Source: Micractinium sp. NFX-FRZ (Eukaryota > Chlorophyta > Trebouxiophyceae > Chlorellales > Chlorellaceae). From it: DNA of 64,000 bases. The DNA lies in NCBI GenBank assembly GCA_029339195.1, contig JAPTJF010000003.1:1-64000 (forward strand), given 5' to 3'. Shown piece by piece: positions 5,065-64,000 of this stretch. Position 1 is the stretch's first letter, and each line of letters starts with the position of its first letter. The notes under the pieces are model-generated. The model searched no databases and had not been told where the DNA came from. It saw only the letters and a program-made list of their open reading frames with translations. Made by a program: the position numbers and the translations under genes.

Positions 5065-7543
5065 ATGTCTGGCTGGCTGCAGGGCATTTTGGAATGGTTG
5101 AGGAGGTGCGCTGGGCAGAGCCCTCAGAAAGTGGCACCTTGCTCGGAGCTCAAACGCAGCCCTGGGCAGTGCAGCGGCGCCCAGTTGTTCGTTGCCGTGT
5201 CGTGAAGAGCTTTAGAGATGGAGCTTTAGGACTGCCCGCAACACCCGAAAGCTCTAGGCTGAGTGGGCAGTGGCGGCAGCGGTGGCAGCAACGGGTGGCG
5301 GCGGCCCGCTGAGCGCCCCTCACCCTGGTTGGTCGTCTGTCTGTTGGGAGCGTGCCACGGTCTAACAGCACTCGTTAGAGCTGTCCGCCCACGAGCCTCC
5401 CCCTGCTGCGCCTGCACCCCACCACTGCACTTGGTGTTTTTGTACTTCCTTTCTTGTCCCCCTCCACCGACAGCCAGTTCTTACGAGCGACGGCCGCGAG
5501 CAGGTGTGAGCCCTGCCTCTTCCTCACTCTTTCTTCTCCCCATCACCTCCCCTGCACTTGCAGCCTGTTCTTCCACAAGGAGATGGAGCTGAGCCTGATT
5601 GGGCTGCAGAATGCGGGGAAGACGAGCCTGGTGAATGTGCTGACCACGGGGCAGTTCCACGAGGACATGATACCCACGGTGGGTGAGGTTGGGGAGGCAG
5701 GGGAGGAGAGGAGGTCTGGTTGGGTGGCGTAAACGGGAGTGCGGAAGGCAGAGAAGTCAGGGAGCGGATGCGGTGGCCGGAGGCAGCGAGGAGGCAGGGG
5801 GAGGGGTGGCAGGAGGTGGAGGCCGTTGTGAGGGGAGCCAGGAAATGCCGGCTGCACTGTGGTCACGTAGGCAGGCAGAGAGTTGCAAGTGTTGAGGGGG
5901 TGAGGGGAAGGGGCTCATAGGGATGCGACCAGCAGGCAAAGGAGGCAGTCGGGCTCTCAGCCAAAGCTTGCCGCACCGAGACAGCGGGTTGGTGGGCCAG
6001 GTGGCAGGCGGGGGTGCGATGCTGAGCAGCCGCAAGCGGCAGCTGCTTAATCGTTGAGGCAGGCCGGCCGGCAGGCATCGTACAGCGGCCAGGTCTTCTG
6101 CCCGAGCCTGCTCCTGGCTGCCTGCCCCTGTTCTCGACACCCTGCCCTGCTGCGAGTGATGGGCAAGGTGACATAGGCAGTCGATCAAGGGCTGCGGCCC
6201 CACCGCTGAACCGCTGCTCCTCTGCCCCACTGCAGGCAGGGCTCAGCATGCGCGCAAGGTACTGGCCTCCAGGCAGCTTCATCAGCGCTAACCACACATG
6301 TAGCACCCTTCCCCCCGCTGCTGCCCTGTTGTGTCTGCAGGTGGGGTTCAACATGCGCAAGGTGACCAAGGGCGGCGTGGTGATCAAGCTGTGGGACCTG
6401 GGGGGGCAGGTGAGCGGGCGGGGGGAGGGCGGGCAGGGGCGGGAGCTTTCAGTGCGTGCATTCTGTAAGTCACAAGGCCGGACAGGGCGGCTGCAAGCTG
6501 TGCCTCCTGCAAGCATTTGCTGCCCTCCCCCTGTGCTGCGCGCTGCTATCCAACTCTCCTCCAAGCTTCCCCCTCAAACCTCTTAGTTGTGTGCCGCACC
6601 TCCACGTCCCCAGTCCTCATCATCTCCAGCTCCCTCCTGCCCTGCCTCCTGCTCTGGCAGGCGCGGCGCTGCTCGACATGGGAGCGACTGCCGTTGGTGC
6701 AGGCCGATGTGTGTGCTCCAACTGACCCGCTCGCCCTCTTCATTCCCCCGCTCCCCCCCTCTCCCTTGCAGACGCGGTTCCGGTCTATGTGGGAGCGCTA
6801 CTGCCGGGGTGTGCAGGCCATTGTGTTTGTGGTGGACAGCGCTGACCTGGACTCGCTGGAGGCGGCAAGAGAGGAGCTGCAGGCGCTGCTGGCCAAGCCC
6901 TCGCTGGTGGGTCGCTGAAGCATGCCTCCTTTGTGTGTGCTGCTCCCCTGTGTGCGGGGCTGGCTGCGGGCAGCGGAGCTGGCGCCTGCTGGGGAGCCCG
7001 CTGGTGCATGGCGGTCGTGGGTCATTGCGGAGCAAGGTTGGGGCTTGGGGGGATGCGTTGTGGCATCAAACCGCTGGGGGGCAGGGCCCATGCTGTATGT
7101 CAAGCGCAGGGTGGGGCCCATGCTGTTGGTCCAAGGATGGAGCAGCTTGAAGCCCCGGCTGCCACCTCAGCCGCCCTTGCGCGCCTCCCGTCGCAACTCC
7201 CCCCCTCACCCCGCCACCTCCGGCTGCCCCCTGCCTAACCCCTGCGTCCTGCTGCCGGTGCTGGGCAACAAGAACGACCTGCCTGAAGCGTGCTGCCAGC
7301 CTCCTGCGCCCACCCCAACCCCGCTCCCTCCCGCTCCGCCCTCCCTGCCTGCAGGCGGGCATCCCGCTGCTGGTGCTGGGCAACAAGAACGACCTGCCCG
7401 AGGCGCTGTCAGCCAACGAGCTGATCAGCCGGCTGGACCTGAAGGCGGTGCAGGACCGCGAGACCTGCGTCTACTCCATCTCATGCAAGCGGCAGTCAAA
7501 CATCGACGTCACGCTGCGCTGGCTGCAGGCGCACGCCAAGTGA
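5065..7543 (+). CDS. ARL8: ARL8-type Arf-like small GTPase
   Basis: Five exons (5065-5105, 5564-5678, 6341-6409, 6772-6906, 7355-7543) join in phase to give 182 residues, the normal ARL8 size. The product starts [17 protein letters not shown], an amphipathic helix with no Gly2, as in ARL8 proteins that bind membranes without myristoylation. The nucleotide-binding motifs are all present: GLQNAGKTS (P-loop), DMIPTVGFNMRK (switch I), WDLGGQ with [11 protein letters not shown] (switch II), GNKNDLP (G4) and [11 protein letters not shown] (G5). ARL8 controls lysosome or vacuole position and transport in other eukaryotes; the algal role is inferred. Each of the four introns contains a decayed copy of the start of the exon that follows it (see findings). 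TGTAA at 7880-7884 is the probable poly(A) signal. Confidence 0.95.
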
Positions 7544-8297
7544 GGCATGCCGCTGCGGTGGGGCACAGCCGTGCGGGCGGAACCTGAGCGCCTCCGTGCT
7601 CCCTGTAGGCATGCCAGACCCTGCCCCCCACCTTACTCGCCGGGCCCGCGCCGAGCCGCCCAGACTGTACTGTACCATACATGCACACAGACTGATGTAC
7701 CTCCCTGTTCCAGCCGCCGTGGGTGGGAGTGACCCCCCGGAATGCCGCCTGCAGGCACAGCCCCTGCACGCGCCCCGTCTCCTTCCCTTGCACCCACTTG
7801 AATTCTTTTGGCACAAGCAGCCATCCCACCCCTTGTACTCTGTCTCATGCCGTCCTTGCCGCCTGGCTGCCCTGCCCCCTGTAAACTCGGTACACTCTTG
7901 AGAGCGGTGGTGGGGCCCCTCTTTGGTGGGGGGCTGTTACAGCAACAGATCAAGCTGGAAGAGAGTAAGAGCTGAGTGAGTGAGTGAGCTGGGCAGTGTT
8001 GAGAAAAGGGGAGAACCGCGCCAGGCGGGGGCCGCCGGCGCAGCGAGAGCGGGGGGCCGGTGCAGCAGCACCAGGCGGCAGGGGCGCTGCGGGGCCGAGC
8101 TGCCGGCATGCCAGCCAAGTGGGGTGGGGGGAATGTGCGGCTAGGAGTGCTAGGTACGCCGACAGGCCTGGTGCGGCAACAGGGCTGCTGGCCGGCTGGC
8201 TGCTGGCAGGGGGAGGTGCCCCAGGCGGGTACTGGCGTGGAAACGCATGCGGCAAGCGGTGGCCACTTGCACCGGCCGCAGCGCCGGCGCCAGCGCC
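7544..8297. other. Convergent intergenic region between ARL8 and the MORN gene
   Basis: No gene is seen. It holds the two 3' UTRs. TGTAA at 7880-7884 suits ARL8 (plus), and TTACA at 7937-7941 is TGTAA on the minus strand and suits the MORN gene. The two poly(A) signals are only about 55 bp apart, so the transcripts probably end back to back. A short (GAGT)n stretch lies near 7970-7990. Confidence 0.6.
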
Positions 8298-11200
8298 TCA
8301 CTGCCGCTGCGGCCGCGTCAGCGACCGCCGCGGCGGCGCGCGCAGCGCAGCCGCGCTGAACGCGCGCTGCACCAGCACCGCTGCGCGGGTCAGGCCCAGG
8401 CTGGCGCTGGCCAGCACGGTGGGTGGCTGGAAGCCGCGCTGCTGCTGCTGCTGGCCGCTGCCGCTGCCGCCCTGCTGCTGCTGCTCCACCCCTGCCGTGC
8501 TGGCAATGAGGTCGTCATCATCAATCTCCTCGTCCTCGTCATCACTAGGGGGCTCCTCCTTGGGAGGCGACTTGCCCTTGGGAGGTGCCTTGTCCTTCTT
8601 CCCCTTGCCCCCCTTGTCCTCGGCAGCAGCAGCGGCGCTGCCGCCAGAGACTGCAGCAGCCTCGGTCTCCATGCGGCGGATGCGCTGCTGCTCGCGCAGC
8701 AGGCGGCGCTCCAGGTTCCGCTTCCTGCGCAGGGGTGGGGCGGAGTCGGGCGGCGGGGATCAGCAGGTGAAGGGCGGGGTGGGGCGGAGATTGGTGGGGG
8801 CGGTGATCAGAGGGTGGGGCGGGCGGCGGAGCTGTGTGCAGCGGAGAGCAGGGGACCTGCCCACCCCATGAAGCCATCTTGCGCCTCTTCTCTCCTGGTA
8901 CGTCTAAGCAGTCTCTTGCTCTGCGCCACCAGCGCCCAACTTTCAGTCCAGCCCGCCGTCAGCCATCGCCTGCCAGCGCCAGCGCCCCCAGAAGCGCTTC
9001 TATGCCTTGGCCGTGACAGAGCCTTCCTCCCCTAGTGCTTCCCTGCCCACCCTCCCCAGAGTGCCAGAGCTGCGTGCAGCCACAGAGAGCCCCCATGTGT
9101 CCAGCCCCCATGGTGAAGCCCAGCCCCTGCCCCCGCCAATGTGTGACCAAGCATCACGCTTGGCGCCCTAGCACTGCAGGCATTTGATGTGAACCAGAAC
9201 CAGCAAAGAGCGGCACTCACTTGCGCGCCTCCTTCTTGCGCCACCGCTTCTGCGCCTTGGCCATGATGGAGCCGGGGGCGACGTCATAGGGCAGGTTGTA
9301 GCTGCCAAAGATGCGGGCGTGCAGCTCCGCCGCCTTCTTCATCGCGCCCTTGATGCTGGGCACGTCTGCGCGGGAGTGGAGCAGCAAAGCAACGGAGTTG
9401 AGATGGAGGTGCTGAAGATCCTGTGCTCCTTCCCGCCGCGCACAGCAATCAGCAGAGCAGAGGTGCCCCCACCAAGCGTCCCTGCCACCTCGCACCCCCA
9501 AAACCCTGCTCATGCCCCGCCCCGCGTCCCCCGCTCACCAGGGACGGGATGGCACTGCCCCAGGGGGCCGGGCGCCAGGAACTTAGTGCCGTGGGGGTAG
9601 TGCAGCGGGTCCTGGGGGGACGGGGGAGGAGGCGGGGTGGGTAGGGGGCGGGGTCAGGGTGGGCCAGAGCCGGCGGTGGCAGGGCGGTGGCAGGAGGGGG
9701 CGGGGGTTCAGGGAGCATGACCAGGCATGCATCAAACGTGTGCGGGTGGGGGGGCACGTGGCGCTGGTGCAACCAGGTACTGTGCCTAGGTGCCATCACA
9801 GCCCCCCAACCCTGGCCACACAGCTGCATGTGGCGGGGCGAGGTGCTGCCAGGTGCAGCCAGGTAGGTAGGTGTACACTTGCCTGCCACCACCACCACTC
9901 TGCACGCGCCCACACATGCAGCAGCAGCAGCGGCGGCAGCGGCAGCGGGGGCAGCGCACCTGCATGAGCGGCGCGGGCATGCCGTTGCCGTCCTGCGCAA
10001 ACCGCCAGGTCACCTCGCCGTCGGGCTTGAACTCAAACATGCGCGCCTTGCCCACCACGCTCTGCACCTCCTGCTCCGTGCCCCTGCAGGCAAGCACACG
10101 CGTCGCCCAGGCGGTAGCGCGGTGGGAGCAAGTGTAGGCCTTGCACTGCCGCCTGCCGCATCGCTGCGCTCATCAGCTTCCCTCTCCTGATGCATTGCCG
10201 CACCTGCCGGGAACGTACTGCCGCCCCTCTCGCTGCCCTCCTCTTGTGCCCTAGCTCTCCTACCTTGCCCCTTCGCTGCCCCAGCCCCGTCCCCGCTTCC
10301 CCCACCTTCCCCGCCCCGGCCCGCGCCGCCCAGTCACTGGACTCAGCGCAGAGCATGGGAGTCCCCAAAGCCAGCAGCCCTTGCCACGCAGCAGCCGGCC
10401 CCTCCCACTCACTTGACCTCTCCCAGCGCGCACCACCCGGAGCTGGAGTCGGGCCCGGTGTAGTACACATCCCTCAGCCACGTCCCCATGCGCTTGCGCC
10501 CCTCGATCTCGGGCTGCGCCTCCGCCCACGCGGCGTCGGGGTCCTGCCCCGCCTCCACGCGCTTGAGGAAGGGGGTGGTGTCGTACTCCACGCCGCACCT
10601 GCACGTGCATTAGCGCTTGGTGCACAGCTTCAGGGCTTGCATCCCAGCGGGGGTATTGCACCCGCATACCCCCGCTTCAAAAAGGCGGGTGCGGTGCCGT
10701 GCAGCATGCCGCCCACTGGGTTTGGGGCAGCCAGGGCCAGGGTGCAACAGTGAGCAGAGCAGCGGCAGCTGGCACGAAGCAGCACGCCTGTCCAGAACAG
10801 CCAGCGGCCGCATGCAGTGACCCGCCTGCAAGCGGCTCAGCCCGCCTGCACACTCACAACGCTGCCTGCTGCGCGCCGCCCGCCAAACTGCGCCCCCACC
10901 CAGCATGCAGCTGCCACCACGCCCAGCGCAGCCCAGCCACCGCAGCAGCAGCAGCCAGCCTGTCCCTGCTGCAGCTGCTCCAGTACGCTGCTGCAGCTGC
11001 TCCTGTACGCTGCTGCTGCTTTTGCACATCCAACACATTTCCAGCAGCCAGCGGCCCTCTCAACCAGCGGCCCCTCTCCCCACTAGCCTGCCCCGCCCCG
11101 CCCGTCCCATTGCACTCACCCGTGGCGCATGCCCGCAGTCCACTCCCCGCGGTACACCCGCCCCTTGGTGCTGGTGTACTGCCCCATGCCAGAGGCGAAG

Positions 11201-12399: not shown

Positions 12400-15300
12400 A
12401 TGGCCTCTGCAGCTGCAACTCTCTCACACCCTGTGGGCAGGGCCTCCCGGCAACAGCCGGCGGGCGCCTCCTTCAGGTGCGGACTCCCCTGCATTTGTGT
12501 GTGGTCCATTGGACGCACAGGGCCACACCTCCCACCTTGTCACTGCGCCCCCACCATGTGCTCCCACGCTGCCTTGCAGGCCCTCTGCCGCGGCTCCCCG
12601 CCTGCGCACCAGCAGCGCGGCCCCCCTGGAGCAGCAGCAGGTGATCCCCAAACGCCCTGGAGGCCTGGAGATCGCGTGGGGAGTGGGGAGAGCTAGGCAG
12701 AGCGGCGGAGGAGGGGTTGCCGCCGGGCGGCGCTGTGGCTCGCCGCACGCACACACACTCCGCGAGCCCTCCAGCTCCAGCCCCTGCTGGCGCTGCTGTC
12801 GACACCGTCATGCAGCTCACCGTGCGTGCCTGCTGTCTCCCACTGCTGCTGTAGCGTGCGGCCCAGCGCGCGGTGCGTGCCAGCGCTGCGGAGACCAAGG
12901 TGGCGCAGGCGGCCACCTCGGCTGCTGAGGAGTACTATGAGGTACGGACAGGAAACGGGGTCAAATCTGTGATGCTTGATGCGATCGATTGTGTGGCAAG
13001 GGCTTGACAAGGGAAGGCATGAGGGTAGGGGCCTGGGCGAGGGCGGCTCCCAGAGTGTGTGTGGGCGGGTGGGTGGGTGAGGGGCAGCAGAGCTCCCGCT
13101 GCTCATCTGCCATCCATCGGCAGGCATCGGATCTGCCGTGTTGGCTGGATAAGGAAACACATGCCTGTGGTGTACAGCTGCCAGCACAGAGGGTCTGGGT
13201 GCCCCAGCGTTCCTGCCCGCCCGCTGTCGCCCGACGTTCACATGTGGTGCCACCCCTGGCCATTCCCACTGGCGTCAAACTTGCGCCCACCGTAGATCGA
13301 TGCCGAAGGCACAACACCTGCGTCCTCCCCCCCCGCCCCCCCACAGGTCACCCTTGCCAAGCCCATTGGCGTCAAGTTTGGTCGCGGCAACGACGGCGGC
13401 GCGTACATCATCCGCACAGACCCCAAGCTGGGCAACACCGACGAGCGGGTGGGTGCAGCACCATGGCGCTGCTGAGTAACTGAAGCGCGGGCATGCGCTG
13501 AATTGGGGGTCCCTTGGCCAGGCAGGGAGGCTGGGGGCCAATGGGCCCGGTGAGCTCTGAACGCCGAGCTGGGCGCCATCGATGCACGCACACTGGCAGC
13601 TGGGTGCATAGTTGTACCGGTGATGTTGAGACGGGATGTGATTGCAGTGGCGGGGTGGGTGAGGCAGAATGCGGGGTATGTGCGGGTCTGTGGCGCCGGC
13701 ACATGGGGGAGGCACATGCCCCCCCTGCTCATCTGCCGTCCCCCGCCCTCCTCCTCTTCTTCGGACATGCACCCGCAGATTGAGGTGGGAGACAAGGTGG
13801 TCAAGGTGTCCGCATCCTTTGGCGGCGACATCTGGGAGGCGCTCAACTTTGGGCAGGTGGGCGGGTGGCACATGGGGGCGGGCCAAGGCGGGGGGGGAGT
13901 GGCGTGCACCTACTGGGTGTTGAAGGAGGGCGAGGGATGCAGTGGCGTGGGTGACGTGCACCTGTTGGGTGATGGAAGGTGTGTCATGCAGCGGAGTTGG
14001 GCAAACGTCTGCGGGGCGTTCACCTCTGGGCAGACCAGGGGGGTGAGCCGCAAACTGCGTCTGGGTGGGGTTGGAGGCGGTGTGCTGGTGCGGGTTGGGT
14101 GCGCTGAAGGTGTGCTCGCCCCCTGTCCCGTGCCCTCTCCCCATTCGTCTCCCCCTCCCTTCGCACTCCCAAATGTGTCATCACCCTCCGTGCCATGCGG
14201 CCTGCGCAACTGTGATGTCCGAGTGGAGACATGCGCCAACAACGCCCGCCATGCTTGCTGCCAACTGCCCTCAGGTCGTGTACGCCATCAAGACGCGTAA
14301 CGGCGACGTGTACCTCCAGATCAAGCGCAACTTTGGGGACATGAGCGCGCTGCAGGTGGGCACACGCTGCGGGGGGAGAATGCGGGAGAGGGTTGGATCG
14401 GGGGAGGTGCCGTGCTGCTTGTTAGGCGCAGGCCAGATATTGCAGGGAGGCGCGGAGCTGTGGGGACATGAATGGGCTGCAGGTGGCCATAGAGGGGGTG
14501 CAGGGCGAGGGAGGACGCTGTGTTGTACTCACGGCGGTACACGCGGCGGCGCTGGAGCCGCCACTCGGAGCGATATGAGCTCGCTGCAGTGCGGGTGAAT
14601 GTTTGGTGGGGGGCAGGAGAGACGAGGGCAGTCGGCCAGATGCTCATGGATGGATTGGATGCTCATGTTTTCTCCCTCTCTTTGCACTGCACATGGCGTC
14701 CCGCCTCCCTAGTGGAATGGCAAGAAAGGGGGAGGGGGCAAAGGCTACAGGGCTGGTGTGTAGGCTGAGGAACGTGCACCCAACAAGTACAGAGCACACT
14801 TGTCGACCCATCCCCTCTGTGTGTTCTTGGCAGGAGGAGGAGCTGACCGAGGCTGAGAAGCAGTTCAAGGCGGAGCGCGGCGGCGGCAACTACGGCGCCG
14901 GCACCAAGGAGATGCAGGTGGGGTGGGGTGGGGTGGGGTGGAGCCGGGGACGGGCGGGACGGGTGCGGGACATTGTTGCGGTGCGCTGCAAAGTGACGGT
15001 AGTGGGCATGTCGGTAGTTCCCAAGTTGGTGTGTGGCTAGGACTGGGGCCCCTGGCAGCTGCTGCCAGGCTGGCGGCAGCTGCATGCGTGGAGCAAAGCC
15101 CGGCTCCCCGCCCTACCTTAGCTGGCAGAGCCCTGTTGTCACCCGTCTGCCCCTCCGCCCTGCCCCCCCGCCTCCACCCCTGCCTCCAGGCGCGCAACTA
15201 CATCAACCGCAAGGAGCAGGAGCGGGAGCGGCGCCAGCTGTTTGACGACGCGCTCGTCAAGTTCAAGAAGGGCACCATCGAGGAGGTGGGTGGCGGAGTG

Positions 15301-20300: not shown

Positions 20301-23300
20301 GCGGAGTGCACTGCCTGCGTGCGGCACCCTGAGCCTGTGCCTGCTCTGCCTGCTGCCAGCGCTGCCCGCCTCACCCCGTGGTTGTGGTGTGGTTGGGCCC
20401 GTCCATGCGCCCCCAGTGCGTGAGGATGATGCTGGGGCGGATGGCGGAGGGCACGTAGCAGGAGGCCTCGTCGTGCGACACCAGCCAGATGTGGTCCTTG
20501 CCGCCCCGCCGGTCCCTGCAGTACAGGCAGTGCATGTCGTACAGTGTCAGCGACGTTCTCTCACTGTTGCTCGGACTTGCACCCGGAAATACTATGGTCG
20601 CATGCCCCCCGACTTACAAACCTGCTGCACACTCATATGCTGTATTGTATGTAAACCTGCCCCTCACCAGTAGGGGTAGTGCGACTGCACCCAGTGGTAC
20701 GCCTCCAGCAGCATGTTGGTCACGCCATGCACCCGCGTCTCGTGCACGCCGTACCAAAAGTCGCGTGGCGTGTCGCTGACGCCCCTGCAGCCAATGTCGA
20801 ACACGTGGAATGGTTGCGGCACCGGTAGGGCAGGGGGAATTGGACAGAGGCAGGGGCAGGTGTGGTGGTGGCGCAGGTCATTGTCAAGGTTCCAGGCCCT
20901 TTGGACACCCCCCTGCCCCCCGGCACATGCAGCCCGCACCTGACTGGCTCGATGAAGCAGGAGGTGAGTACCGGCACGTAGAAATAGTCTGCGCACAGGC
21001 AGGTTGAAGTTCGAATGAGGGTTTGGGAAAAAGCAGGGGACAGGGCAGCAGAGGGAGGAACAACCATAAAAACACAGGAAGGGATGGAGCGGCGCTGGAG
21101 TGGGGCAGCGCATGGCAAAGCGCATGGCCAGGACTGAGGGCAGCTGCACCGCAAGAAGCATGCCCTATAACCACTTCTCGCACCAACTGCTCACGCCCAG
21201 TCCTTTCCTACCCCACCCCGAGAGTGAGCCTCCCGCCCGCCCTTACCACCCACATAGCCCCACCCCCCACCCACCCGCCTCCTCCGGGTCCAGCGTGCGG
21301 TGCTCGCTCTGCAGCAGCGTCTCCAGGAATCCAGGCTCAACATTAAAGGTCCAGCCTGCGGTGGGCCACCGGGGAGAATGGAGGGCGGGACAGAAACACC
21401 ACGGAGTTGGAGCATGCGCATGAGTGCAGCAGCTTCTCTAGACTTGGCTCAATGCCCATGACCTAAGTGAAGCACCACCAGTGTGCCTCACTGCACCTGC
21501 CGCCCTCCCTGCAGCGCATGGCGCACCCGGCAGTGCTCGCCTTGGTGCTCTGCGGGTGAAGTGGGGGAGTGCCCACTGCCCTCCCCAAGCTGTGCATGCT
21601 CTGCTGCTCACGAGCGTGCAACCACACCACAGCACTGCATTGGAAGTGTTGTAATGCTGCATTGCCACGCTAAATCCCTCCCCCACCCCCTGGTCGCCTC
21701 GTGCTGCACACGGTGCACGCGTGCACCCACCCGACAATGCGGTCTGGTTGCCTGCGGTGTAGTGGCGGGACGTGCAGCCGTTGCGCTCGTGCCGGTACTG
21801 CATCATCAGGGTGGCATAATCTGCGGCCATCTCGTACCTGCAGGCAAGTTGCACAACACACATGTCGCATGGCATCATGCATGCAGTGCCAAACGGCAGA
21901 CTGATCTGAAGAGAGGCAGAGGCAGAAGGTTGTGAAGGAGGGGAGGGATGTGCGTTGATGGTGCATTGATGGAAAGGAATGGTGCGATCGGTTGGCCTCT
22001 CGCACGCGCCGACCTACGCAGACCCACCCCGGCCAACCAACAGAGTAAGGTGCGATGAGGAGGAGTGAAGTGGAGGATACACAGACCGCCATGCCCAAGC
22101 AAGCGACTCCAGGCGCTGTGCGGAGGCATGCTGTTGTTGAGCAAGCGCAGCCAGCAGCCACCACCTCACGGCACCCCTCCCTTCTCACACTCACACGTAT
22201 ATGAGCGGCCGCTTGAGCGTGGCACCGGGCGCAAAGTCCTTGGCAGCGGGCGTGTGCACGTGGGGTGCAATCCAGGGCCGCTCAGCCTCACGCCCCGGCT
22301 TTGAGACGTCCGCTGCCTCGCTGCGGTGCGCGCAGTCAATGCCGTGCCACCCTGCAAGAGGGAGGGAGGCAGGGCGCACGCAAGCAAGCGGCGTGTGTAA
22401 AAGTTGGGTGGCGTGCAGCAATGCAGGGTGCTGCAGCAAATGCCTGCACAGAACAAACTGCACGTACAAACACACACACTTTCAACGCCAGCCCACCCTC
22501 TGCTCCAGCAGCCTGTCGCTGCCAGGCCCGCACCTGGGTCGCACTTGCAGTAGCCGTGCAGGCACTCCCCCCGCCCGTTGCACTGGTTGAAGCAAAACTG
22601 CATCCACAGGAGCAGGGGGGCAGGGGCAGGGAGGGGAGCAGTGTGCCGGTTCAGCTTGGTATCAACAGGCAACAGCAAGGTAAGCGGCAAGCTGACACAC
22701 GCATCGTGAGGGGCTCCGCTGAACCGGCCGGCGCTGCACACGCCTCCCCACCTGCTCATAGCGCTCCTCGCAGCCGTTACCGCCATAGCCTGCCAGGGCA
22801 GAGGGAAGCAACAAAATGCAGGTGGGTTGCAGTCAGCTGTTGGCACACACAGGCCAGCCAGAGCACCTTAAGGCAACTTGCAGGTAGCCTGGCTGCTGAA
22901 CGGGCAGTTGAGCACACCAGTGCTGGGTGGCGTGCACACGCGGGCAGACAGGCAGCAGGCAGACAGCGACAGGGCAGCTGGGAGGCCCTGCCCACCCTGC
23001 ATGCAGCCACCAACAAGCTGGAGCCCAATTGTCCACCCTGCAACCAGACGCACGCCCCGTCAGGGGAGCACCCATTCCTTCCAGTGCAGGCCGTCGGGCG
23101 GGCGGGCCAGCCGGCAGGCGGAGCGCAAGGACCAGTTGCCTTCCCCCAGCGCGCTCACCGTCGAGGAAGCACTCGCACTGGTGCTTGGGCACCTTTGCGT
23201 TGCACCACCCCTCGGGCCCAAACAGCAGCTCCGGGTCTATGGTGCCCCACCCCGTGATGTTGGGCTGGCACCAGCCGCCCATCATGCGGCCCTGCCTGAT

Positions 23301-25877: not shown

Positions 25878-25910
<33 letters not shown>

Positions 25911-41302: not shown

Positions 41303-41335
<33 letters not shown>

Positions 41336-42282: not shown

Positions 42283-44646
42283 TCACTTCTTGCCCATCTT
42301 CCGCTTCAGCGCCGCCAGCTCATCCTCCACGATCTCAGCAGTCGACTTGCGCTCCAAGGGAGGCCTGCCCGCTCCCCCCGCCGCCGCCCCGCCGCCGCTG
42401 CTGCCGCCGGCCGCCCCGCCGCTGCCGCCGCCAGAAAAGGCCGAGGACATGGTCCGGCCCCCTGGGGCGCTGCCAGCACTGCCGCCGCTGGTGCGTGCGC
42501 TGCTGCTGCTGCCGCCGCTGCTGCTGCTGCTTTTGGGGCCAGAGTCGGCGTCGCCGTTGCCGCTGAGGTCACCATACTTCTTCTTGAAGTTTGAGTACGA
42601 GGTGGCCTCTTCGTCAGACACCCCCAGGTTCTGTGGGGGGCGGAAAGGAGGGGCAGGCGCAAGGAGGGGGAGACATGGGTGGGGTGCCAGGCGGATGCTT
42701 GGATCTCGCATCTTACCCAGGAGCTCCACGAATCCTGCCCAACACTCTCGGTGCCTGCTGTTGTCATCAACACTTTCCCTCCCATCCCCCCACGCATTCT
42801 GCAGCACTCCCCCTTGGCTCACATGCCACCTCGCCTACTACTGGACCTCCACAGTCTCCCCCGCCCCACACACCACACACCATATGCACACGCTTGCACA
42901 CACACACTTGCCGCAAGCGTGCACTACAGCAGAGAAGCAGGCCAGGGCGGCCCCCCCCGCCCCCCACCGGCTCCAGCAACTCCACATCCTCTCCCCCCTC
43001 CTCCCACACGCTTGCACAGAAGCCAGGCCAGGGCGCCCGCCCACCTGCTCCAGGAACTCCACAAACTCCTCCCCAATGTCGTACAGCTCCTCCCACAGAG
43101 ACTTGGGCAGGCCCCCGGATGCGGCAGAGGATGAAGAGGCAGAGGCGGAGGCTGAGGAGGAGGAGGCGGCACGCTTGCGCTGCCGCTCGCGTGCATAGTC
43201 GGACAGCTCCTTGTCCAGGTCGCGCAGCAGGTCGCCTGGACAACAGGAGGGGGGAGACACAGGCAGGAGTGAGGTGTGCTATGAGTGTGCAGCAGGCGGG
43301 CAGCTTGTTCATGAGCCACAGACGGCATGGGAACGGAGGCCCTGCAGAGTATGCACACTATCGCCTGGGGAGGAAAGGGGAAAGCAGGGCGAAGACAGAG
43401 CAAGGGGGACAGCTGCACATGCGTGGTGGGGCAACAGGTGCAGGGGGCAGCAAGGCGGAGCGAGTGGCGGCAGGAGGCAAGGGACACAGGCAGCGCAGCA
43501 CGCAAGGCACGGTACAGGCTGTGCAGCAGCCGGCAACATGGGCGGGAAAGCACGGCCAGGCAAGGCGGTGCAGGCAGTACCGGCAGGTGGCCCAGCAACC
43601 CAAGTTCCCAACCCAGGCGGGCACCCACCGAATGAGTAGTCCGGCTCCGGAGGCTGCCACTGCCGCTGCTGCTGCTGCCCACCGTAGGAGGACTGCCCGC
43701 TGCCGCTGCTGCTATTGCGGGCGCCCCAGCTGCCGGCGCCACCGCCTGCTGCGCCGCCGCGCCCGGCGCCGCCGTACCCGCTGCTGCTGCTGCTGCTGCT
43801 GCTGCCGCCCCTGCTGCCGGTGCCCCGGCCTTCCCGCTCATCCAGCAGCTGCTGGTAGGCCTGCTTGGCTTCCATGAACCGCTCGCGGGCGTCCGGCTGT
43901 GGGGCAGGCGGGGAGGGGCAAAGGTGAACCAAGGGTCTCAGCAGGGCCCATGGTCTGCTTGCTCTGGGAGGCCATGGCAGGGCCACCCCTACCCCGAGGA
44001 GCTGCCGCCCTCCCCCCATTTGCTCGCTCCACCAACCCCCGCTACTCGTCATGCCAGTACCAGCAGCAGACTGTCGATGCCCAGCAGTGCTCCCACCCAC
44101 CTGCCTGGCCACACTCACAGCCAGCATGCAGCAGCTGCAGCCCTCATCACACTCGCAGAGGGCAGGCAGTGCCACGCTGCTACAAACAAACACCCAGGGG
44201 GTGTACAGCTGTGGCCCCCACACTCGCTCACCGCCTTGTTGACATCAGGGTGCAGCTTCAGCGCCCGCTTGCGGAAGGCCTTCTTGATGTCTGCCGCGCT
44301 GGCGCTGCGGGGCACGCCCAGCAGCTCATACGGATCACGGTTGCTGGCTGCCGCCACCACGTGCCGCGCCGCTCCCTCCCGGTGGCAGCGGCAGCAGCGG
44401 TGGCGGCGCAGTAGCTGCGCCGTTGCGCCCCGCGGCTGCTGCACCTGCGATGGCCTGCAGGCAGATGGTAATCAGAGACGGCTGTAATGTAAGGAAGGAG
44501 TGGCGAATGTAAGGAAGGAGTGGCGGAGGTCCTGCCTGCGCGGGAGCTTGGCAATTCTTCTTGGCGGTGCGGTGCGCTCACCTGCTGGCACGAGCCTGCG
44601 GCGATCGCAGCCAGGCACAGGCTGCTTGAAGGCCGGCCGCCGGCAT
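42283..44646 (-). CDS. J-domain (DnaJ-like) protein, plastid type
   Basis: Exon 1 starts at 44646 with [20 protein letters not shown], an Ala/Arg-rich transit-peptide-like leader. It joins in phase to an exon containing the J domain: [36 protein letters not shown] (the HPD motif is intact), then [21 protein letters not shown] long Ser/Gly/Gln linker follows. The C-terminal part has [20 protein letters not shown] and [20 protein letters not shown], and ends [20 protein letters not shown]. There is no Zn-finger or DnaJ C-terminal substrate domain, so it is a type III J-protein that would recruit an Hsp70. The [17 protein letters not shown] segment recalls a plant plastid J-protein subgroup. Plastid location is inferred; the client is unknown. 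Confidence 0.85.
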
Positions 44647-47723: not shown

Positions 47724-47770
<47 letters not shown>

Positions 47771-49189: not shown

Positions 49190-49600
49190 AATGCGCCAGC
49201 GATGGCAACGATCAGGCACAGCCCGCCCATCAACATGTTGGCCTGAGCAGGCGGCCCGCCAGCCTGGCCGCCGCCACCGCCTGGCTGTTGACCCACCCTG
49301 GCAGCGGGGCCAGCCGTGCCATCCTCCTTTGTTGAACATCAAGAGAATTATCAACGGATATAAAAAAAGGTCAGACAGCAGAGAGTGAGCGCATCACCGT
49401 AATATATCTGTTATCGTTCTTTCTTGGGTGTTTATCTGTTATTGTCGTAGCAGGGAAAGAAAGAGGGCAGGGCGAGAAGGATTTGCGACGACTGAGAGTG
49501 TGCGCAGAGGGCACCAGGAATGCAGTGGTCTGGCGTGCAACACAAGGATGGGTACATGTGTTATGTGTGTCTGAACTTGATAAGTCATGAACAGTGGGAT
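49190..49600. other. Promoter side of the SMYD4-like gene
   Basis: No gene is seen. An A-rich word (GGATATAAAAAAAGG) at 49357-49371 stands out from the GC-rich surroundings. The gene is on the minus strand, so the TATAAA word is in the wrong orientation to be its TATA box in a simple sense. The region is otherwise unremarkable. Confidence 0.4.
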
Positions 49601-49770
49601 TTAACTTGTTGGGTGTGGGAGTAAGTTGTTGGGTGCGGGAGTAAGCTGTTGGGTGTGGGAGTAACTTGTTGGGTGTGGGAGTACATTGTTGGGTGCGGGA
49701 GTAAGCTGTTGGGTGCGGGAGTAAGCTGTTGGGTGTGGGAATAACTTGTTGGGTGTGGGAGTAACTTGCT
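49601..49770. repeat. 20-bp minisatellite, eight full copies plus a half
   Basis: The unit is GTAACTTGTTGGGTGTGGGA, repeated in exact 20-bp register from 49601, with single-base variants (TGTGGGA or TGCGGGA; AACT, AAGT or AAGC; one GTACAT). It lies about 60 bp past the stop of the GARP-like gene, so it is probably in that gene's 3' UTR. There are no spacers between units, so it is not a CRISPR. Confidence 0.97.
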
Positions 49771-49831
49771 GTGTGATGGATCATGCCCGACCAGCAGCCG
49801 GCAGCGCAGCCTGCCGCCCACGGGCAGCCGC

Positions 49832-57913: not shown

Positions 57914-60900
57914 TCAACGCCGGTCGCGCTTCGAGCGCTCCCGGCTGCGGCTGCGGCTCCTCCGCCGCTCCTTCTCCTTCTTCCTCTCCTTCTCCCGCGG
58001 CGGCGACCGGCTCCTGCTGCCACGCCGCTCCTTGTCCCGCCGCCGCTCCCCCCGCTCCCGGCTGCGGCTCCTGCTGCGCCGCTCCTTGTCCCGCCGCCGC
58101 TCGCCGCGGTCGCGGCTGCGGCTGCGCCGCCGCTCCCGCTCCTCCCGCTCCCGCTCCTGCCCGCCGCGCCCCTCCGCCTCCTCCTGCCGCGCCCCCGCCA
58201 CTGGCGCGGCAGGCACTGGCCGCCGCTCCTCCCCTTCCTCCAATTCCATGTCATCCTCAGCTGCCGCCGCCGCTGCTGGTGCTGCCGCCGCCTTGCCTGC
58301 CCCCTTCCTCCCCTCTCCATCCTCCTCAATCTCCATGTCGCCCTCCTCCTCGGCTCCATCCCCACCACCGTTGGCCGCCCCCGCCTCTGCAGCGCCGGCA
58401 GCCGCCTGGGCCGCCTTGGCTTCCGCCTCTGCCGCAGCTGCCGCCTCGTCCTCTGCCGGGTTGTGCCCCAGAGCCACCAGCATCTGGGTGACGCGCTCCA
58501 CCTGGCGGGCCCGCTCCTCGGCGCCGTCTGCAGGCAGGGGCGGGGAGTGGGGCGGGCACACGGCTGGGTGCAGAGGAAAGCAGCAGGGGGCAGATCATGG
58601 CAGGCGTGCAGGGGAGGTGGACGTGTGGGTGACATGCTCCGGGGCCTGCGGCAGGAGCCAGGCAGTGGGGCAGCAGGAGGTGCATGGTTGGCTGGAGGGG
58701 AGGACCGCGGGAGATGGTGGTGGCATGCCCAAGCTGCAGAAGGAACCAGGCAAGCAAGGCAGGCCGCCCTGCCCAGCGCTCGGGGAGGCGCCTCACACTG
58801 CCGGGCCGTGCACGTCCACCCCGCCCTCGCCCCAATGCCTGCGTCTCCTGCCCTGCCCTGCCCACTGCCCACAACCTGCCACCTCACTAACTCACGGGGG
58901 TTGGCCCGGTGGCCCAGCAGCAAAAGACGCATGCCGCACCCTACCCCACCCACAACCCATACAGAGCCGCACCCCCTGCCCCGACTGGCCCTCCATACTC
59001 CACTGCCACTCACCGTCCTCCCCCAGGTTGGCGGGAGTGCCTCCCGAAGTGCACAACTCAAATCCCTCATCTGCTGCCCTGCCCCATGCCCGCTGCCCAA
59101 AGCCTGCCACTGCACTAACTCGCCGTCCTCCCCCAGGGTGACCCGATAGCCCAAATGGAGAAACACACCCCCACCTCCCAACCCACAAAAAGCCTCACCC
59201 CCGGCCCTGACTGGCCATAGCAGCCTCACTCACCGTCCTCCCCCAGGTTGGCGCGGTACTCCAGCAGCACGCTGCGCAGCGAGGCCAGGGTGCGCCCCTT
59301 TTGGTGCAGCAGGCGCAGGATGCGCTTGCGCACGCCCACGTCGCCCACCAGCCATAGGGCGCCCACGATCAGCGCGCACTGCGGGGTGGGAGTGGAAAGT
59401 TGGGGCGGGGGAAGAAATCGGTAACCATAGTGGCAAAGGCAAGAGAAGGCAGTAGCATGCAAGGCAGGAATTGGCCCCCGCTTGCCCAACCGCATGCCCA
59501 CCCGCCCCACCTCCCTCCTGCTGCATGGTACACAGTCCTTGCCGCAATTGGCGTGCCACCAGCACCTCAACCCCACACCGCCACGCACCCTCCCCAGACA
59601 GTTGCTCGCCAAAGACACCTAAGCAAGGAACCGCCCGCCACCCTCCCTCTCACCTGCTGCAGGGTGTAGCGCCCCGCCTCCATGCGCGCCAGCAGCAGGT
59701 CGTCCTCATCTAGCTCATCATCTGCTGCCGCCTCACCAGCCAGCCTGAACAGGGCAGCAGCAAACAGAGGATGCAATCCAACAGTGAAAGTTGAGAGGGG
59801 CCAGGGTCTGGCACGAGGGCAGCCCCTCTGCCTCACCCAGCCACAAATCAGCCAAGGCACATGCACGAAACTGCCCCTTTGTCGGCTAACTCACCACGCC
59901 GCCACCGCCGCCACCCGAGGCCCACGCTTGGTACGCCTCCACCTGGTCCTTCCCCCCACACAACCTCTGCACCCCCCAGAACACGTGTATGCTACTGGCC
60001 CCCCTCGTCGGCTCACTCACCGCGCCTCCTCCGCCGCCACCCGCCCCTCGTACTTGAAGTACACCTCCATCAGGCGGTCGCACTTTTCAAACTCAGATTC
60101 AACGAACTTGGCGGCCACGCGGTCGCGGCGGGACTGCAGGGGAGGAAAGAAGACGAAGGGTGGATCGAAAGACGCAAGGGAGAGGGAGGTGTAAGGCGGA
60201 GAGGGGGATGGGAGCAGGGCAGGAGGGAGGGTGGCGGCCATGCGGTTATGGCCGGAGTGGAGTGGAGGTCGGAGATGGGTAGAGGAAGCGAGGATCAAGA
60301 GGGAGCGGCGGGCATACTCGGCAAGCATGGTGGCCGCACAAGCGCGGGGTGGCTGCCAGGGTTGGGGTGGGTGCCAGAAACTGGAACTGAGAAGGAGGGG
60401 ACAGGTGTGGCGTCCGCAGGATCAAGGTGCAAATGCCGGGGCCGGCAGGGGGGTGATGGCGCAGAGGCGAGACACCTGGGAACCAAGCCGAGTGGAGCAC
60501 AGGCCTGCCCCCTCAGGCCTCCTTACCTGCTGCTGTTCACACTCTTCATGCCTGCACCTATATGCTCTGCTCACCCCGCCCCGCCCCACCGCACCTGCTT
60601 GGTGCAGCCGGCCAGCAGTGATGAGATGATGGACACGGTGCGCTCCTCCTCCTCCTCAGCCGCCGACTCTTCGCGCTTCTTCACCTGCAGCGCAGCGCAG
60701 CACAGCCAGCACAGCAAGGGCATGGTGTGAGCATGGTTTGGCATGACCAGCATGAACAGCACAGGCGCGCTCCTCCCTCCTTCGCTACAGCACACACAAG
60801 TTGCGCTTGCTCACCTGCAGCACAGCACGGCACGGCGAAGCGTGACACAGCACAGCACAGCACAACATGACCCGATTGGCACAGCACAGCACAGCACAGC

Positions 60901-63900
60901 ACAACCCGGTTGGCACAGCTCCAAATCCGGCACAGCGGCGCGCATGACAGCATGTCACGACACGGCACAGCACGGCGCACCAAGGCCCCCCCGTTGGCAC
61001 GCCTACCCGCGCCCCTCCTGTCCCCACCTTCTGCTTGCCCGCCCAAGAAGATGACTAGGCACACCCACCCGCGCCCCTAGTAAACCCACCTTCAGCTTGC
61101 CCATGAAGATGGCGAAGATGGTTTTCAAGCCCTGCTGGTCCACCACCCGGTCGCAGGCGGGGGGGCAGCGCGTGGTGGCAAAGTCCAGGCACTTGAGCGC
61201 GGAGGTGCGCGCCGCACGCTTGCCCTTCAAGATCAGCAGCAGCAGCTCCACACCTGGGGGCACGGAGGTGGGAGACAGGGGCAAGAGGGCAGCGCTTGAG
61301 TGGGCACATGGCTGGGCTTGCCCTTGAGGAGTGGCAGCAGCAGCACACCTGGGGAGTGGGGGTAGGCGGAGAGGGAAGAAAGGACACATGGAGGGGGTGC
61401 GTGCAGAGGGCAGGCATGGGCACAGCTCGCCAGGCCCAGTTGGGCACAGAGTGGCACAAGAGGCGCAGCGTTGCACATGCGACTCTCACCCACCGTATCC
61501 AAAAACACGGCCATGCTGCAGAATAGGCAGCCGGCACAGCCTGGCACAGCGCAGCGGGCACAGCACAGCAGCCCAACACAGCCTCACCCTCTGCCTCCAC
61601 AAACACGGTTTTGTTGTCGGGCAGCAGCAGGCAGGATGCGATGACGTCAAACAGGTTCTCAACCAGCTCCTCCTCCTCTGTGGTCTCAGGGTCCCTGCAT
61701 TAGAGGGCCGGGGTGGGTGGAGTGGGGGGCAAAGAAGCGTAAGGTGGGGTTCAGTTGGGGTGGAGATGAGGGAAGGACAACCAGCTGCTCTTCCTGGATG
61801 ATCTCCAGGCCCCTGCAGGAGGGTTAGGGAAGTTCAAGTAAAAGGGGAGCATGAAGGGATTAAGATAACTTGGGGAGGTTCAGCAAAGTTCCCCATCCGC
61901 TCCGACTATTTTTTCAACACAACACGCAGCCAGGCAGACGGGCAGGCAGGCAGGCAGGCAGGCGACAGGCTGGCGGGCGGGCGCACCTGTTGCGGTAGGG
62001 CGCGATGGACTGCAGCACCGCGTCAATCCCGTTTGTGGCCCCCATCTTGCGCTTGTTGGCGTCTGGCGGGGCCGGGCAAGGCAGGGGCAGGGGCAGGGGG
62101 AGGGAGGGGTAAGGAGGGGTAAGGAGGAGTGGTGGGGTGGGCCAGGTGTGGCAGGCATGCAAAATAGTCCAGAGTAGTGAGCAGCGGCGGGGAAGAGGGT
62201 CGTGTTCTCTGTTCTCCGTGCCACTGCAGCCTCCTGGGCTCTGCCTGCTTGCAGGCTTCCTCACTGCCCACAGCCCACCACACAGCCCACCCCCTGCCTG
62301 CACCCACCCACCCGACTGCTGCACCAGTATTGCCAGTATCTCGCTGGCGTACTGCTTGTTGCTGTCCGCATCCTTGGACCGCATGCGGGACAGCAGCCAC
62401 TTGAGGAGCTGCGGGCAGGCGGGCGCGCCACAGGCGAGGGGCCGGGCATTAGCACAGGAGTAGGGGTGAGGTAAGCAGGCAGGGGTGGGCAGGCAAGGGC
62501 AGCAGGGGTGGCAAGTGTGACAGGCAGGGGTCTTGAGCGGCGCAGGGAACTCAGGCGGGAGGTGCGCGGACGGTGCACAGGGGAGCACTGTGGTCAGCGG
62601 GGATTCTGACCGCTGCCGGCACCACCACCGCATGCGTGATACGACCATCCTCTCGCCTTGCCCTCGCCAGCACAGCGCCCCCGCCTGCTGCCTTCCACTT
62701 CACGACATCCTGCCCCTCCACACACACCGGCATCCTCCCACTTCTTCAGGTGCCTGCTCCCCTCCCTCACCTTTGTGCTCTCCAGCACCGCCTCTGCCAC
62801 CTCAGGCTTCACCTCCACCATGTTTTCCACAATGCTCAGCACATTGTAGACAGCCCCCGCCTCGGCCGCCACCTTTTCGTCAAACGACGACAGCCGGTGC
62901 ACCAGCAGGGTGAGGGCGTCGTTCTCCAGCAGGTGGTCCACCAGCACCGCCGCCTCCTCCTCCTGCAAGCAAGCCACAGTAAAGAGAGGGAGGGTGACGG
63001 AACCTGGTCAATGGCAGAGAAGTGTACACAATGCACCAGGCAGCCAAAGGACACGTTCTCCAGCACGCACGCCTCCTCCTCGTCAAGCATAGTCAGAGAG
63101 GGAGGGCGATGGGACTCGTCAGGTGGCAGAAGATTTCAAGCACTGCACCAGGCAATATGTGCCGGCAGGTGGTCCACCGGCACCGCCGCCTCCTCCTCCT
63201 GCGCACGCACACACATATGTGAAGGGATGACAGGACTCATCAATTAGCAGTGAATTGCATACACTGCGCCACCAGCATGAGAGGTCTCGTTCTCCGGCAG
63301 GTGGCCCAGCAGCAAAGCCCGCCTCCTCCTCCTGCAAGCGCAGTCCACAACCACACGTGCCCTCCCTCCCAATCCTGCGGCCTAACCCTCCTGCCCACCC
63401 ACCCCACCCACCCCCATGCAGTTGGTCAGTCAGTCCCCTCAGTCAGTCAGTCCCCTCCTCACATTGTCCTCCACCGCGTCGCCGTCGGTGAGCTCCGACA
63501 TGACCTCGATGGCATCCGCCGCAATGTCGCTGTTCTCGTGGTTCAGCAGCGCCAGCAGCGTGGGCACCGCGCTGGTGCTGCAGGCGGGCGGGGACAGGGG
63601 TCATATACGATGGCAGGTGGGAGGACGTGCAGGTTTGCAAGCAACGCGACGAGGGGCAAGAGGAAGAGTCACAGCGCCGGCAGCAGCGTGGGGCTGGCAG
63701 CGGTGCTTCAGGGGTTGGGTGGGGCGTGAGAATGGGCAGGAATACAACTTATGTGAAGAAACGGAAGCAGGGAAGAATCCTCCCTTTTCAAGCCCCCCAT
63801 CCCCAGCAGCCACCCCTTCCTGACCTGGCCACCAGCTCCGGGTAGAGGTCGGGTGCTGTGGCCACCACCAGCAGCGCCTTGACCGCCTCATCCAGGTCGG

Positions 63901-64000
63901 CCTCGCTCTCCAGGAATTTGTCGGGCTGGTCGGCGTACCGCATGCGCGCCTCCAGGTTGGCGTTGTACTGCAGCGGGTCAAGGGGCGGTGCAGGGTTTGG
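57914..64000 (-). CDS. CTNNBL1: Beta-catenin-like protein 1 (CTNNBL1) with an RS-rich tail; 5' end beyond the window
   Basis: An ARM-repeat protein that in other eukaryotes binds the Prp19/CDC5L spliceosome complex. Exons read, in order: YNANLEARMRYADQPDKFLE, KALLVVATAPDLYPELVA; VPTLLALLNHENSDIAADAI with VMSELTDGDAVEDN; EEEAAVLVDHLLENDALTLL, YNVLSIVENMVEVKPEVAEA; LLKWLLSRMRSKDADSNKQY with ASEILAILVQQS; ATNGIDAVLQSIAPYRNR; ELVENLFDVIASCLLLPDNK; GVELLLLILKGKRAARTSAL with KTIFAIFMGKLK; TVSIISSLLAGCTKQ; VESEFEKCDRLMEVYFKYEG; LLLARMEAGRYTLQQ; IVGALWLVGDVGVRKRILRL with SLRSVLLEYRANLGED. The order matches CTNNBL1 throughout. The last exon (about 58530 to 57914) adds RQVERVTQMLVALG, an acidic stretch, and then an Arg/Ser/Glu-rich tail. 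Residues before YNAN lie beyond 64000. Introns are full of exon-edge echoes. Confidence 0.9.
58893..59253 (-). repeat. 110-bp tandem repeat carrying copies of a CTNNBL1 exon end and donor
   Basis: The real exon end and donor lie at 59231 (plus-strand word CACCGTCCTCCCCCAGGTTG). Copies sit at 59121 (CGCCGTCCTCCCCCAGGGTG) and 59011 (identical 20-mer), exactly 110 bp apart, with a fourth decayed copy near 58893. Between them the flanking text also repeats. The copy at 59011 still has an intact GTGAGT donor. Confidence 0.9.
62917..63340 (-). repeat. 118-bp tandem repeat carrying copies of a CTNNBL1 exon start and acceptor
   Basis: The real acceptor and exon start are at 62962 (encoding EEEAAVLVDHLLEND). 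Copies begin near 63080, 63199 and 63331, reading EEEACVLEN, EEEAAVPVDHLP and EEEAGFAAG. The acceptor AG survives in the second and third copies and is lost in the first. Spacings are about 118, 119 and 132 bp. Confidence 0.88.

What the first reader, a model, noticed from the sequence alone, without database searches (positions are those of the whole stretch)
5065..63970. Window-wide 'echo' pattern: introns contain decayed tandem copies of the adjacent exon edge and its splice site
In at least six unrelated genes (ARL8, TIC100-like, TEF30, exostosin B, XEG113-like, CTNNBL1) I find intron segments that align to the first or last 20-55 nt of the neighbouring exon plus its splice site. Acceptor-side echoes lie upstream of the real acceptor and donor-side echoes downstream of the real donor, most often 60-140 bp away. 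So each is what a small tandem duplication across the junction would leave inside the intron. More than 20 cases were found by eye. Most copies are out of frame or have lost the splice site, so they do not look like alternative exons. The inference is that intron length in this lineage grows by recurrent junction-spanning duplication. A functional role (decoy or recursive splice sites) is possible. I know of tandem-duplication models of intron gain, but not of a description of this layout.
Basis: partly seen in the sequence, partly recalled or inferred. Interest (0 to 1): 0.92.

Follow-up and report, generated by a model that had tools for sequence, protein, structure and literature searches.

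The report
Decayed exon-edge duplicates inside algal introns
In this green alga many introns carry worn copies of the neighbouring exon's edge together with its splice site, best explained as small tandem duplications across the splice junction that lengthened the intron and then decayed without function.

Summary
With gene models for 349 kb of this algal genome (window plus 29 other stretches; 601 introns), 89 of 1106 exon edges match their adjacent intron at p<=0.01 (11 expected; 6 of 1106 against reversed introns; 8 of 1049 against a non-adjacent intron of the same gene). A separate scan found 58 exon-intron copy pairs; 37 are spaced 80-140 bp, and 33 of those 37 reach the splice edge (20 acceptor, 17 donor). 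Introns carrying one are longer (median 393 vs 243 nt). Three exostosin paralogues differ at one shared intron: no echo, donor echo, acceptor echo. The copies show no frame preference, mutate almost evenly over codon positions and keep the splice dinucleotide at the neutral rate (22 of 34). They look like neutral relics of junction-spanning tandem duplications, visible because the exon copy is conserved. That most copies lost the splice site is not supported; no decoy function is seen. One such duplication is published in potato; I found no genome-wide description. The sharp spacing and an exon part never above 64 nt hint at a splicing filter. Other lineages could not be tested.

The parts
7244..7289 (+). 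acceptor-side echo in ARL8 intron 6907-7354 (copy of exon 7359-7404, lag 115); extended duplicate 7199-7301 vs 7309-7414
   Evidence: p=0.008; 108 aligned columns at lag 111.5, 78% identity, so close to a complete tandem unit
6679..6705 (+). acceptor-side echo in ARL8 intron 6410-6771 (exon 6790-6819, lag 111)
   Evidence: p=0.014
8995..9016 (-). donor-side echo in TIC100-like (MORN) gene intron 8725-9220 (exon 9245-9266, lag 250)
   Evidence: p=0.009; MORN in Pfam
13254..13278 (+). acceptor-side echo in TEF30 intron 12942-13346 (exon 13351-13375, lag 97); splice site lost
   Evidence: p=0.008; site check
14005..14033 (+). donor-side echo in TEF30 intron 13857-14274 (exon 13828-13856, lag 177)
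   Evidence: p=0.008
14452..14482 (+). donor-side echo in TEF30 intron 14356-14833 (exon 14325-14355, lag 127); donor CAG|GTGGCC kept
   Evidence: p=0.009; site check
3183..3210 (-). donor-side echo in glycosyltransferase-like gene intron 2920-3294 (exon 3302-3330, lag 120)
   Evidence: p=0.008; gene name recalled, not tested
21425..21441 (-). acceptor-side echo in exostosin A intron 21356-21730 (exon 21310-21326, lag 115)
   Evidence: p=0.008
28654..28682 (+). acceptor-side echo in exostosin B intron 28376-28736 (exon 28737-28766, lag 83)
   Evidence: p=0.007
29827..29846 (+). donor-side echo in exostosin B intron 29748-29952 (exon 29724-29743, lag 103); the exostosin A counterpart (20516-20667, 152 nt) has none
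   Evidence: p=0.005; paralogue comparison
39053..39078 (-). acceptor-side echo in XEG113-like gene intron 38975-39457 (exon 38944-38969, lag 109)
40897..40916 (-). acceptor-side echo in XEG113-like gene intron 40739-41079 (lag 182)
   Evidence: p=0.007
42970..42996 (-). donor-side echo in DnaJ-like gene intron 42631-43044 (exon 43047-43074, lag 78)
   Evidence: p=0.008; gene name recalled
59014..59033 (-). donor-side echo in CTNNBL1 intron 58528-59233 (lag 220); a second copy lies at 59115-59148 (lag 110), a two-step ladder
   Evidence: p=0.009; events at lags 110 and 223.5
59897..59941 (-). donor-side echo in CTNNBL1 intron 59745-60020 (exon 60023-60069, lag 128)
   Evidence: p=0.006
61316..61344 (-). 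acceptor-side echo in CTNNBL1 intron 61254-61587 (exon 61218-61246, lag 98); AG kept
   Evidence: p=0.007; site check
63060..63339 (-). ladder of acceptor-side echoes of CTNNBL1 exon 62771-62962 (lags about 126, 235 and 368); one rung region (63178-63198) was called a 21-nt exon by the gene finder and is probably spurious
   Evidence: events at lags 126, 235, 368; the 7 residues are absent from the solved beta-catenin-like protein 1 sequence 4hnm
63672..63692 (-). acceptor-side echo in CTNNBL1 intron 63578-63824 (exon 63544-63564, lag 128)
   Evidence: p=0.006

Best explanation
Small tandem duplications, mostly of about 85-137 bp, arose across exon-intron junctions, duplicating roughly 20-60 nt of exon, the splice site and some tens of nt of intron. 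The protein stays intact only if splicing uses the outermost copy: the last acceptor or the first donor. Survivors are therefore those in which it does. The inner copy becomes part of the intron, which grows by one unit, and it then mutates neutrally. The functional exon edge is held constant by selection, so it serves as a reference in which old duplications stay visible long after intron-internal ones of the same age have faded. Shown: locality, orientation, junction anchoring, longer introns, neutral decay, differences between paralogues. Inferred: the duplication step itself (break repair or slippage), the splicing filter, and that most of the visible events are old.
For: Excess of junction echoes against reversed, reverse-complement, other-gene and non-adjacent-intron controls. 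Near-complete head-to-tail units in several events: aligned length/lag 1.12 in L007, 0.97 in ARL8, 0.96 in L019. 33 of 37 events at lag 80-140 reach the splice edge; 20 acceptor, 17 donor. Lag modulo 3 = 19/23/16 in 58 events. Mismatch by codon position 66/427, 75/431, 85/426 in 38 events. Splice dinucleotide kept 22 of 34 against 23.7 expected. Echo introns longer: 375 vs 241.5 nt (acceptor), 389 vs 238.5 nt (donor), median lags 117 and 127; 34 introns with an event, median 393, vs 567 without, median 243, p=1.5e-7. Paralogous intron 152 nt without echo / 205 nt with donor echo at 103 / 355 nt with acceptor echo at 98. Simulated neutral tandem duplications aged 0.3-0.7 substitutions per site (a window chosen to fit) give exon-intron:intron-intron 3.6-8.9 (observed 37:6), a detectable intron half in 0.15-0.29 (observed 11 of 44), seed length 31-32 (33) and a high-identity share of 0.14-0.16 (8 of 44). 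Gene models: TEF30 colinear with 7 homologues, ARL8 with solved ARL8A.
Against: A steady-rate model with uniform ages fails: it predicts about 1:1 exon-intron to intron-intron, a detectable intron half in 0.39-0.57, and a high-identity share of 0.43-0.61, so an old age peak must be assumed. Other age windows fit less well: 0.2-0.6 gives 2.3:1, and 0.4-0.9 gives 24:1 to 59:1, or 5.4:1 with fewer indels. With measured exon identity taken at face value the intron half should be seen in 51-99% of events, against 9 of 26. Several high-identity copies (L024 lags 83 and 98, L029 lag 97) show no sign of the intron half; among 8 high-identity events 3 show it. The exon part never exceeds 64 nt (0 of 37) where unrestricted simulations give 10-29%; a filter is assumed. 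The length excess of echo introns (150 nt) is larger than the median lag (109). No RNA data and no second species.
Confidence: 0.8

Rival explanations
1. The copies are functional decoy, recursive or backup splice sites kept by selection, so the exon edge and its site persist in the intron while the rest decays.
For: Exon-intron pairs far outnumber intron-intron pairs at lag 80-140 (37 to 6). The intron half is detectable in only 11 of 44 events. 22 of 34 copies keep an AG or GT, with median scores of 5.1 and 5.5 against 7.2 and 7.05 for the real sites.
Against: Kept sites are no more than the neutral expectation of 23.7. Mismatches are nearly even over codon positions. No echo with the same side and spacing is shared between the paralogous introns compared (14 exostosin A introns with a counterpart in B, 8 with one on contig 275; one intron has acceptor-side hits in both A and contig 275, but at lags 181, weak, and 113). 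An old neutral age peak reproduces the same numbers.
Confidence: 0.08
2. A process coupled to the junction itself (for example break repair or RNA-templated copying tied to the spliceosome-bound region) copies the exon edge and splice site into the intron about 100 nt away, without duplicating the whole unit.
For: High-identity copies in L024 and L029 without a visible intron half. Exon part never above 64 nt in 37 events. Tight spacing, quartiles 97-117 within the 80-140 class, with none at 140-160.
Against: 9 of 26 events show duplication of the intron half by local score, 11 of 26 by global score, and some are complete tandem units. The intron-half deficit fits old neutral duplications.
Confidence: 0.08
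3. Chance or compositional similarity of exon edges and intron ends, or errors of gene models or assembly.
For: The genome is G+C-rich and repetitive; the gene finder calls some echoes as exons.
Against: Reversed, reverse-complement, other-gene and non-adjacent-intron controls are at or near chance; the highest is 4 of 125 for reverse-complement donors. The annotation-free lag scan shows 34 exon-intron hits at lag 80-140 against about 0.2 expected from lags 2000-3960. Copies are diverged, so they are not assembly duplicates.
Confidence: 0.03

Closest known systems
Potato RdRp tandem duplication (PMC4974935)
   Same: A tandem duplication crossing an intron-exon boundary: 3' intron end, splice site and 5' exon part (passages, including parts of the abstract, and the results section seen).
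   Different: One case; there the unit created a new intron and a new exon piece. Here many introns already present were lengthened and the inner exon copy is spliced out.
[quoted passage not shown] Hellsten 2011; Gao and Lynch 2009)
   Same: Tandem duplication supplies extra splice sites.
   Different: That model duplicates an exonic AGGT segment and makes a new intron from the duplicated stretch. Here the unit spans an existing junction and the intron is far longer than the unit. Known only through passages in PMC4974935 and PMC3443670; the Gao and Lynch original is not held and the other two were not looked up.
Small tandem duplications at staggered DNA breaks (PMC8355091)
   Same: Short head-to-tail duplications; [quoted passage not shown]
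   Different: Enzymes and break geometry cannot be tested here; no link to splice junctions appears in the passages and introduction that I saw.
Tandem exon duplication / mutually exclusive exons (recalled)
   Same: Duplicated coding sequence beside the original.
   Different: Here only an exon edge of at most 64 nt is copied in the 37 events at lag 80-140, without frame preservation.

Membership tests
Small tandem duplications | Direct orientation, local, head-to-tail unit | tested here: met
   Reversed and reverse-complement controls at or near chance (reverse-complement donor 4 of 125 was the highest); complete units in several events; but the intron half was found in only 9 of 26 and 11 of 44, so completeness is shown for a minority
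Small tandem duplications | Made by fill-in at staggered breaks (Pol alpha-primase, end joining) | not testable with these tools
   Breakpoints are decayed; needs young alleles or mutants
[quoted passage not shown] new intron about one unit long | tested here: not met
   Introns with events have median 393 nt against a lag median of 109; units reach across existing junctions; 14 of 18 exostosin A introns have a counterpart in B
Tandem or mutually exclusive exons | Frame kept, coding selection on both copies | tested here: not met
   Lag modulo 3 = 19/23/16; mismatch 0.155/0.174/0.200 by codon position
Functional decoy or recursive splice sites | Splice site of the copy conserved above neutral | tested here: not met
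   22 of 34 kept, 23.7 expected
Functional decoy or recursive splice sites | Site used in RNA | not testable with these tools
   No RNA-seq
Introners or transposon-borne introns (recalled) | Same sequence dispersed over many genes | tested here: not met
   Exon edges match their adjacent intron beyond other genes' introns, which are the null; one non-adjacent intron of the same gene gives 5 of 530 and 3 of 519. Only exon edges were tested, not whole introns against each other

The most novel reading that the evidence does not exclude
Duplication in this alga is coupled to splice junctions. A process tied to the exon-intron boundary repeatedly copies a unit with at most about 64 nt of exon, at a preferred spacing near 105-110 bp, and has supplied much of the intron sequence. 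If detection is 5-10% as simulated, each intron has received about 0.6-1.3 such events.
Probability: 0.15. Interest if true: 0.88.

Novelty: new variant of a known kind. Interest (0 to 1): 0.62.

Why it matters
How introns grow where transposons are not the obvious source is, as far as I know, little documented. Conserved exon edges here act as fossil markers, so junction-spanning duplications can be counted, roughly dated and compared between genes. The copies are natural experiments in splice-site choice: two once-equal sites a known distance apart, with a known amount of exon behind the losing one. They also mislead gene finders, which call some echoes as exons.

Tried and rejected
Uniform-age neutral model: rejected (EI:II 0.92-1.10 by events, 0.6-0.9 by ungapped hits; intron half 0.39-0.57). 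A first reading that about half the copies lack the intron half and so are not tandem duplications: weakened once the full detection pipeline was simulated with old ages, not excluded for single copies. Intron gain (intron length equal to lag): of three short-intron candidates, printed, two were echoes that the gene finder had partly called as short exons, and the third (L014) has a lag of 109 in a 128-nt intron and was not followed further. Gene-finder absorption of long echoes as the sole cause of the 64-nt limit: tested at acceptor junctions with exons of 110 nt or more by inserting simulated echoes; at t=0.4, 6 of 60 (80 nt) and 6 of 60 (100 nt) were called exon and 1 and 11 of 60 lost the real junction; at t=0.1, up to 26 of 60 were called exon and 24 of 60 lost the junction. 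So it weakens but does not remove the limit. The printed extensions contain self-alignments where the compared stretches overlapped; I used instead. The cross tests acc_x and don_x search the same introns and were not used. Rows set aside: L001 (overlaps the window) from all counts; 11 satellite-like events; 4 of 38 events without an aligned edge. Of the 6 intron-intron events at lag 80-140, one belongs to an exon-intron ladder (L018) and two to one array (L024). Literature: nine searches showed in their listings no description of the genome-wide layout; most subscription papers are not held.
Full report
SETTING. The window is the start of contig 3 of a 66.07-Mb, 838-contig assembly, about 65% G+C. 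It comes from a chlorellacean green alga: the TEF30 model is 82% identical to a protein of Micractinium sp. CCAP 211/92 and 78% to one of Chlorella ohadii.

GENE MODELS. I trained a hidden Markov gene finder on the window and 20 stretches of 10 kb. It gave 457 introns, median 249 nt, with canonical splice consensus. External checks: of five window models scanned, Pfam recognises the Arf family, MORN, exostosin GT47 and CTNNBL1 in four, and nothing in TEF30. ARL8 aligns without a gap to solved ARL8A (4ile) over residues 15-181. TEF30 aligns with 7 homologues without a gap in columns 101-300; gaps lie in the N-terminal part and near the C-terminus. CTNNBL1 matches solved beta-catenin-like protein 1 (4hnm) but carries a 7-residue insert that is itself an echo called as a 21-nt exon, 63178-63198. 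So in these genes the outer splice site is the coding one, and echoes can fool gene finders.

THE OBSERVATION. Each exon edge (50 nt) was aligned to its adjacent intron and scored against length-matched introns of other genes. 37 of 432 acceptor and 37 of 422 donor edges reach p<=0.01, against 4.3 and 4.2 expected; reversed introns give 1 and 3. Exon ends far from the junction give 3 of 244 and 1 of 232. Nine further stretches (85 kb, fetched later, no retraining) give 8 of 127 and 7 of 125; reversed 1 and 1, reverse complement 0 and 4. Pooled, 89 of 1106 against 6 of 1106 in reversed introns. Against one non-adjacent intron of the same gene, 5 of 530 and 3 of 519. The similarity is therefore local, directional and confined to exon edges. 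In the window alone, 17 of 201 tested edges reach p<=0.01.

ANATOMY. An alignment scan that starts from sequence alone, labelled afterwards with the gene models, found in 349 kb 58 exon-intron, 26 intron-intron, 15 exon-exon and 12 intergenic copy pairs, besides 11 satellite-like arrays. Of the exon-intron pairs, 37 have a lag of 80-140 bp, none 140-160, 2 below 80 and 19 above 160; intron-intron pairs are below 80 in 13 of 26 (Fisher p=1.2e-6). Of the 37, 33 reach within 5 nt of the splice edge; 20 are acceptor-side and 17 donor-side; the copied exon part has median 27 and maximum 64 nt. In several events the whole head-to-tail unit is still visible. CTNNBL1 holds ladders of two to three rungs. 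Lag modulo 3 is 19/23/16.

INTRON GROWTH. Introns with an echo are longer: 375 vs 241.5 nt and 389 vs 238.5 nt for acceptor and donor echoes, differences of 133.5 and 150.5 nt beside median lags of 117 and 127. In the full set, 34 introns with an event have median 393 nt and 567 without have median 243 (p=1.5e-7), a difference of 150 against a median lag of 109. Exostosins A and B of the window (70% identical) and a third paralogue on contig 275 share many intron positions. At one, the introns are 152 nt (A, none), 205 nt (B, donor echo, lag 103) and 355 nt (contig 275, acceptor echo, lag 98). No echo of the same side and spacing is shared in that comparison; at one other intron A has a weak acceptor hit (lag 181, p=0.033) and contig 275 an acceptor hit at lag 113. 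I read these as independent gains.

FATE. Differences between echo and exon fall almost evenly on codon positions: 66/427, 75/431, 85/426. The splice dinucleotide is kept in 22 of 34 events, against 23.7 expected from exon identity. So the copy decays neutrally: neither purged nor preserved. It also implies (inference) that the inner site was mostly ignored from the start; otherwise its loss would have been favoured.

AGE AND COUNTS. If duplications arose at a steady rate, intron-intron pairs should be about as common as exon-intron pairs at lag 80-140, and the intron half should be detectable in 39-57% of events. Observed: 37 to 6 and 11 of 44. A neutral model with ages of 0.3-0.7 substitutions per site gives 3.6-8.9 to 1, 15-29%, and about the observed seed length and identity; ages of 0.2-0.6 give 2.3 to 1 and ages of 0.4-0.9 between 5.4 and 59 to 1. 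The window was chosen to fit, so this shows sufficiency, not proof. The simplest reading is that most visible events are old, and that the conserved exon edge is the reference in which they survive. Detection under such models is 5-10%, so 37 visible events would stand for roughly 0.6-1.3 junction-spanning duplications per intron. This is an extrapolation from simulated parameters, not a count.

WHAT REMAINS ODD. The exon part never exceeds 64 nt, where unrestricted old-age models give 10-19% above it and the uniform-age model 29%. Gene-finder absorption of long young echoes explains part of this. A splicing filter would explain it and the lack of short units: an inner site followed by little exon, in a unit long enough to carry a full set of intron signals, loses to the outer one. 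Three high-identity copies show no intron half and could be exon-edge-only copies.

PRIOR WORK. A single duplication crossing an intron-exon boundary is described in potato RdRp, where it made a new intron (PMC4974935; passages and the results section seen); the same paper mentions an 83-bp tandem duplication inside the first intron. Reviews treat tandem duplication as a route of intron gain from exonic AGGT segments (PMC3443670, passages). Small tandem duplications at breaks are well established (PMC8355091, introduction and passages). The listings of nine searches of the held library showed no account of genome-wide junction-spanning duplications lengthening introns; Gao and Lynch 2009, which may bear on it, is not held.

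VERDICT. A real, strong and replicated pattern, best explained by a known kind of mutation seen through an unusual lens. It is a new variant of a known kind, interesting chiefly as a tool for intron growth and splice-site choice. Its taxonomic spread is untested.

Noticed in passing
L020:5700-7050: A 1.2-kb array of roughly 41- and 63-bp repeats between genes, labelled intron by the gene finder in a probably spurious two-exon, 18-aa model.
   Followed up: no
window 17380-24377 (-) and 26396-32944 (+): Two divergently oriented exostosin GT47 paralogues, 70% identical, with mostly shared intron positions; further exostosin-like exon matches on contigs 36, 90, 97, 270, 275, 277, 349 and 423.
   Followed up: partly
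window 63178-63198: A predicted 21-nt in-frame exon of CTNNBL1 lies inside an echo ladder and has no counterpart in the solved beta-catenin-like protein 1; either spurious or an echo on its way to becoming an exon.
   Followed up: partly
L006:7594-7641 and L006:9505-9512: Echo copies that the gene finder called as exons; the second keeps an intact CTGCAG acceptor.
   Followed up: partly
window 49594-49768: Tandem array of a 20-bp unit (8.4 copies) with a 60-bp higher order, within an intron of the gene model 45132-53185.
   Followed up: no
L024:8305-8690: Stretch with several overlapping duplications (lags 91 to 348), a nested array with identities of 0.71-0.96.
   Followed up: no
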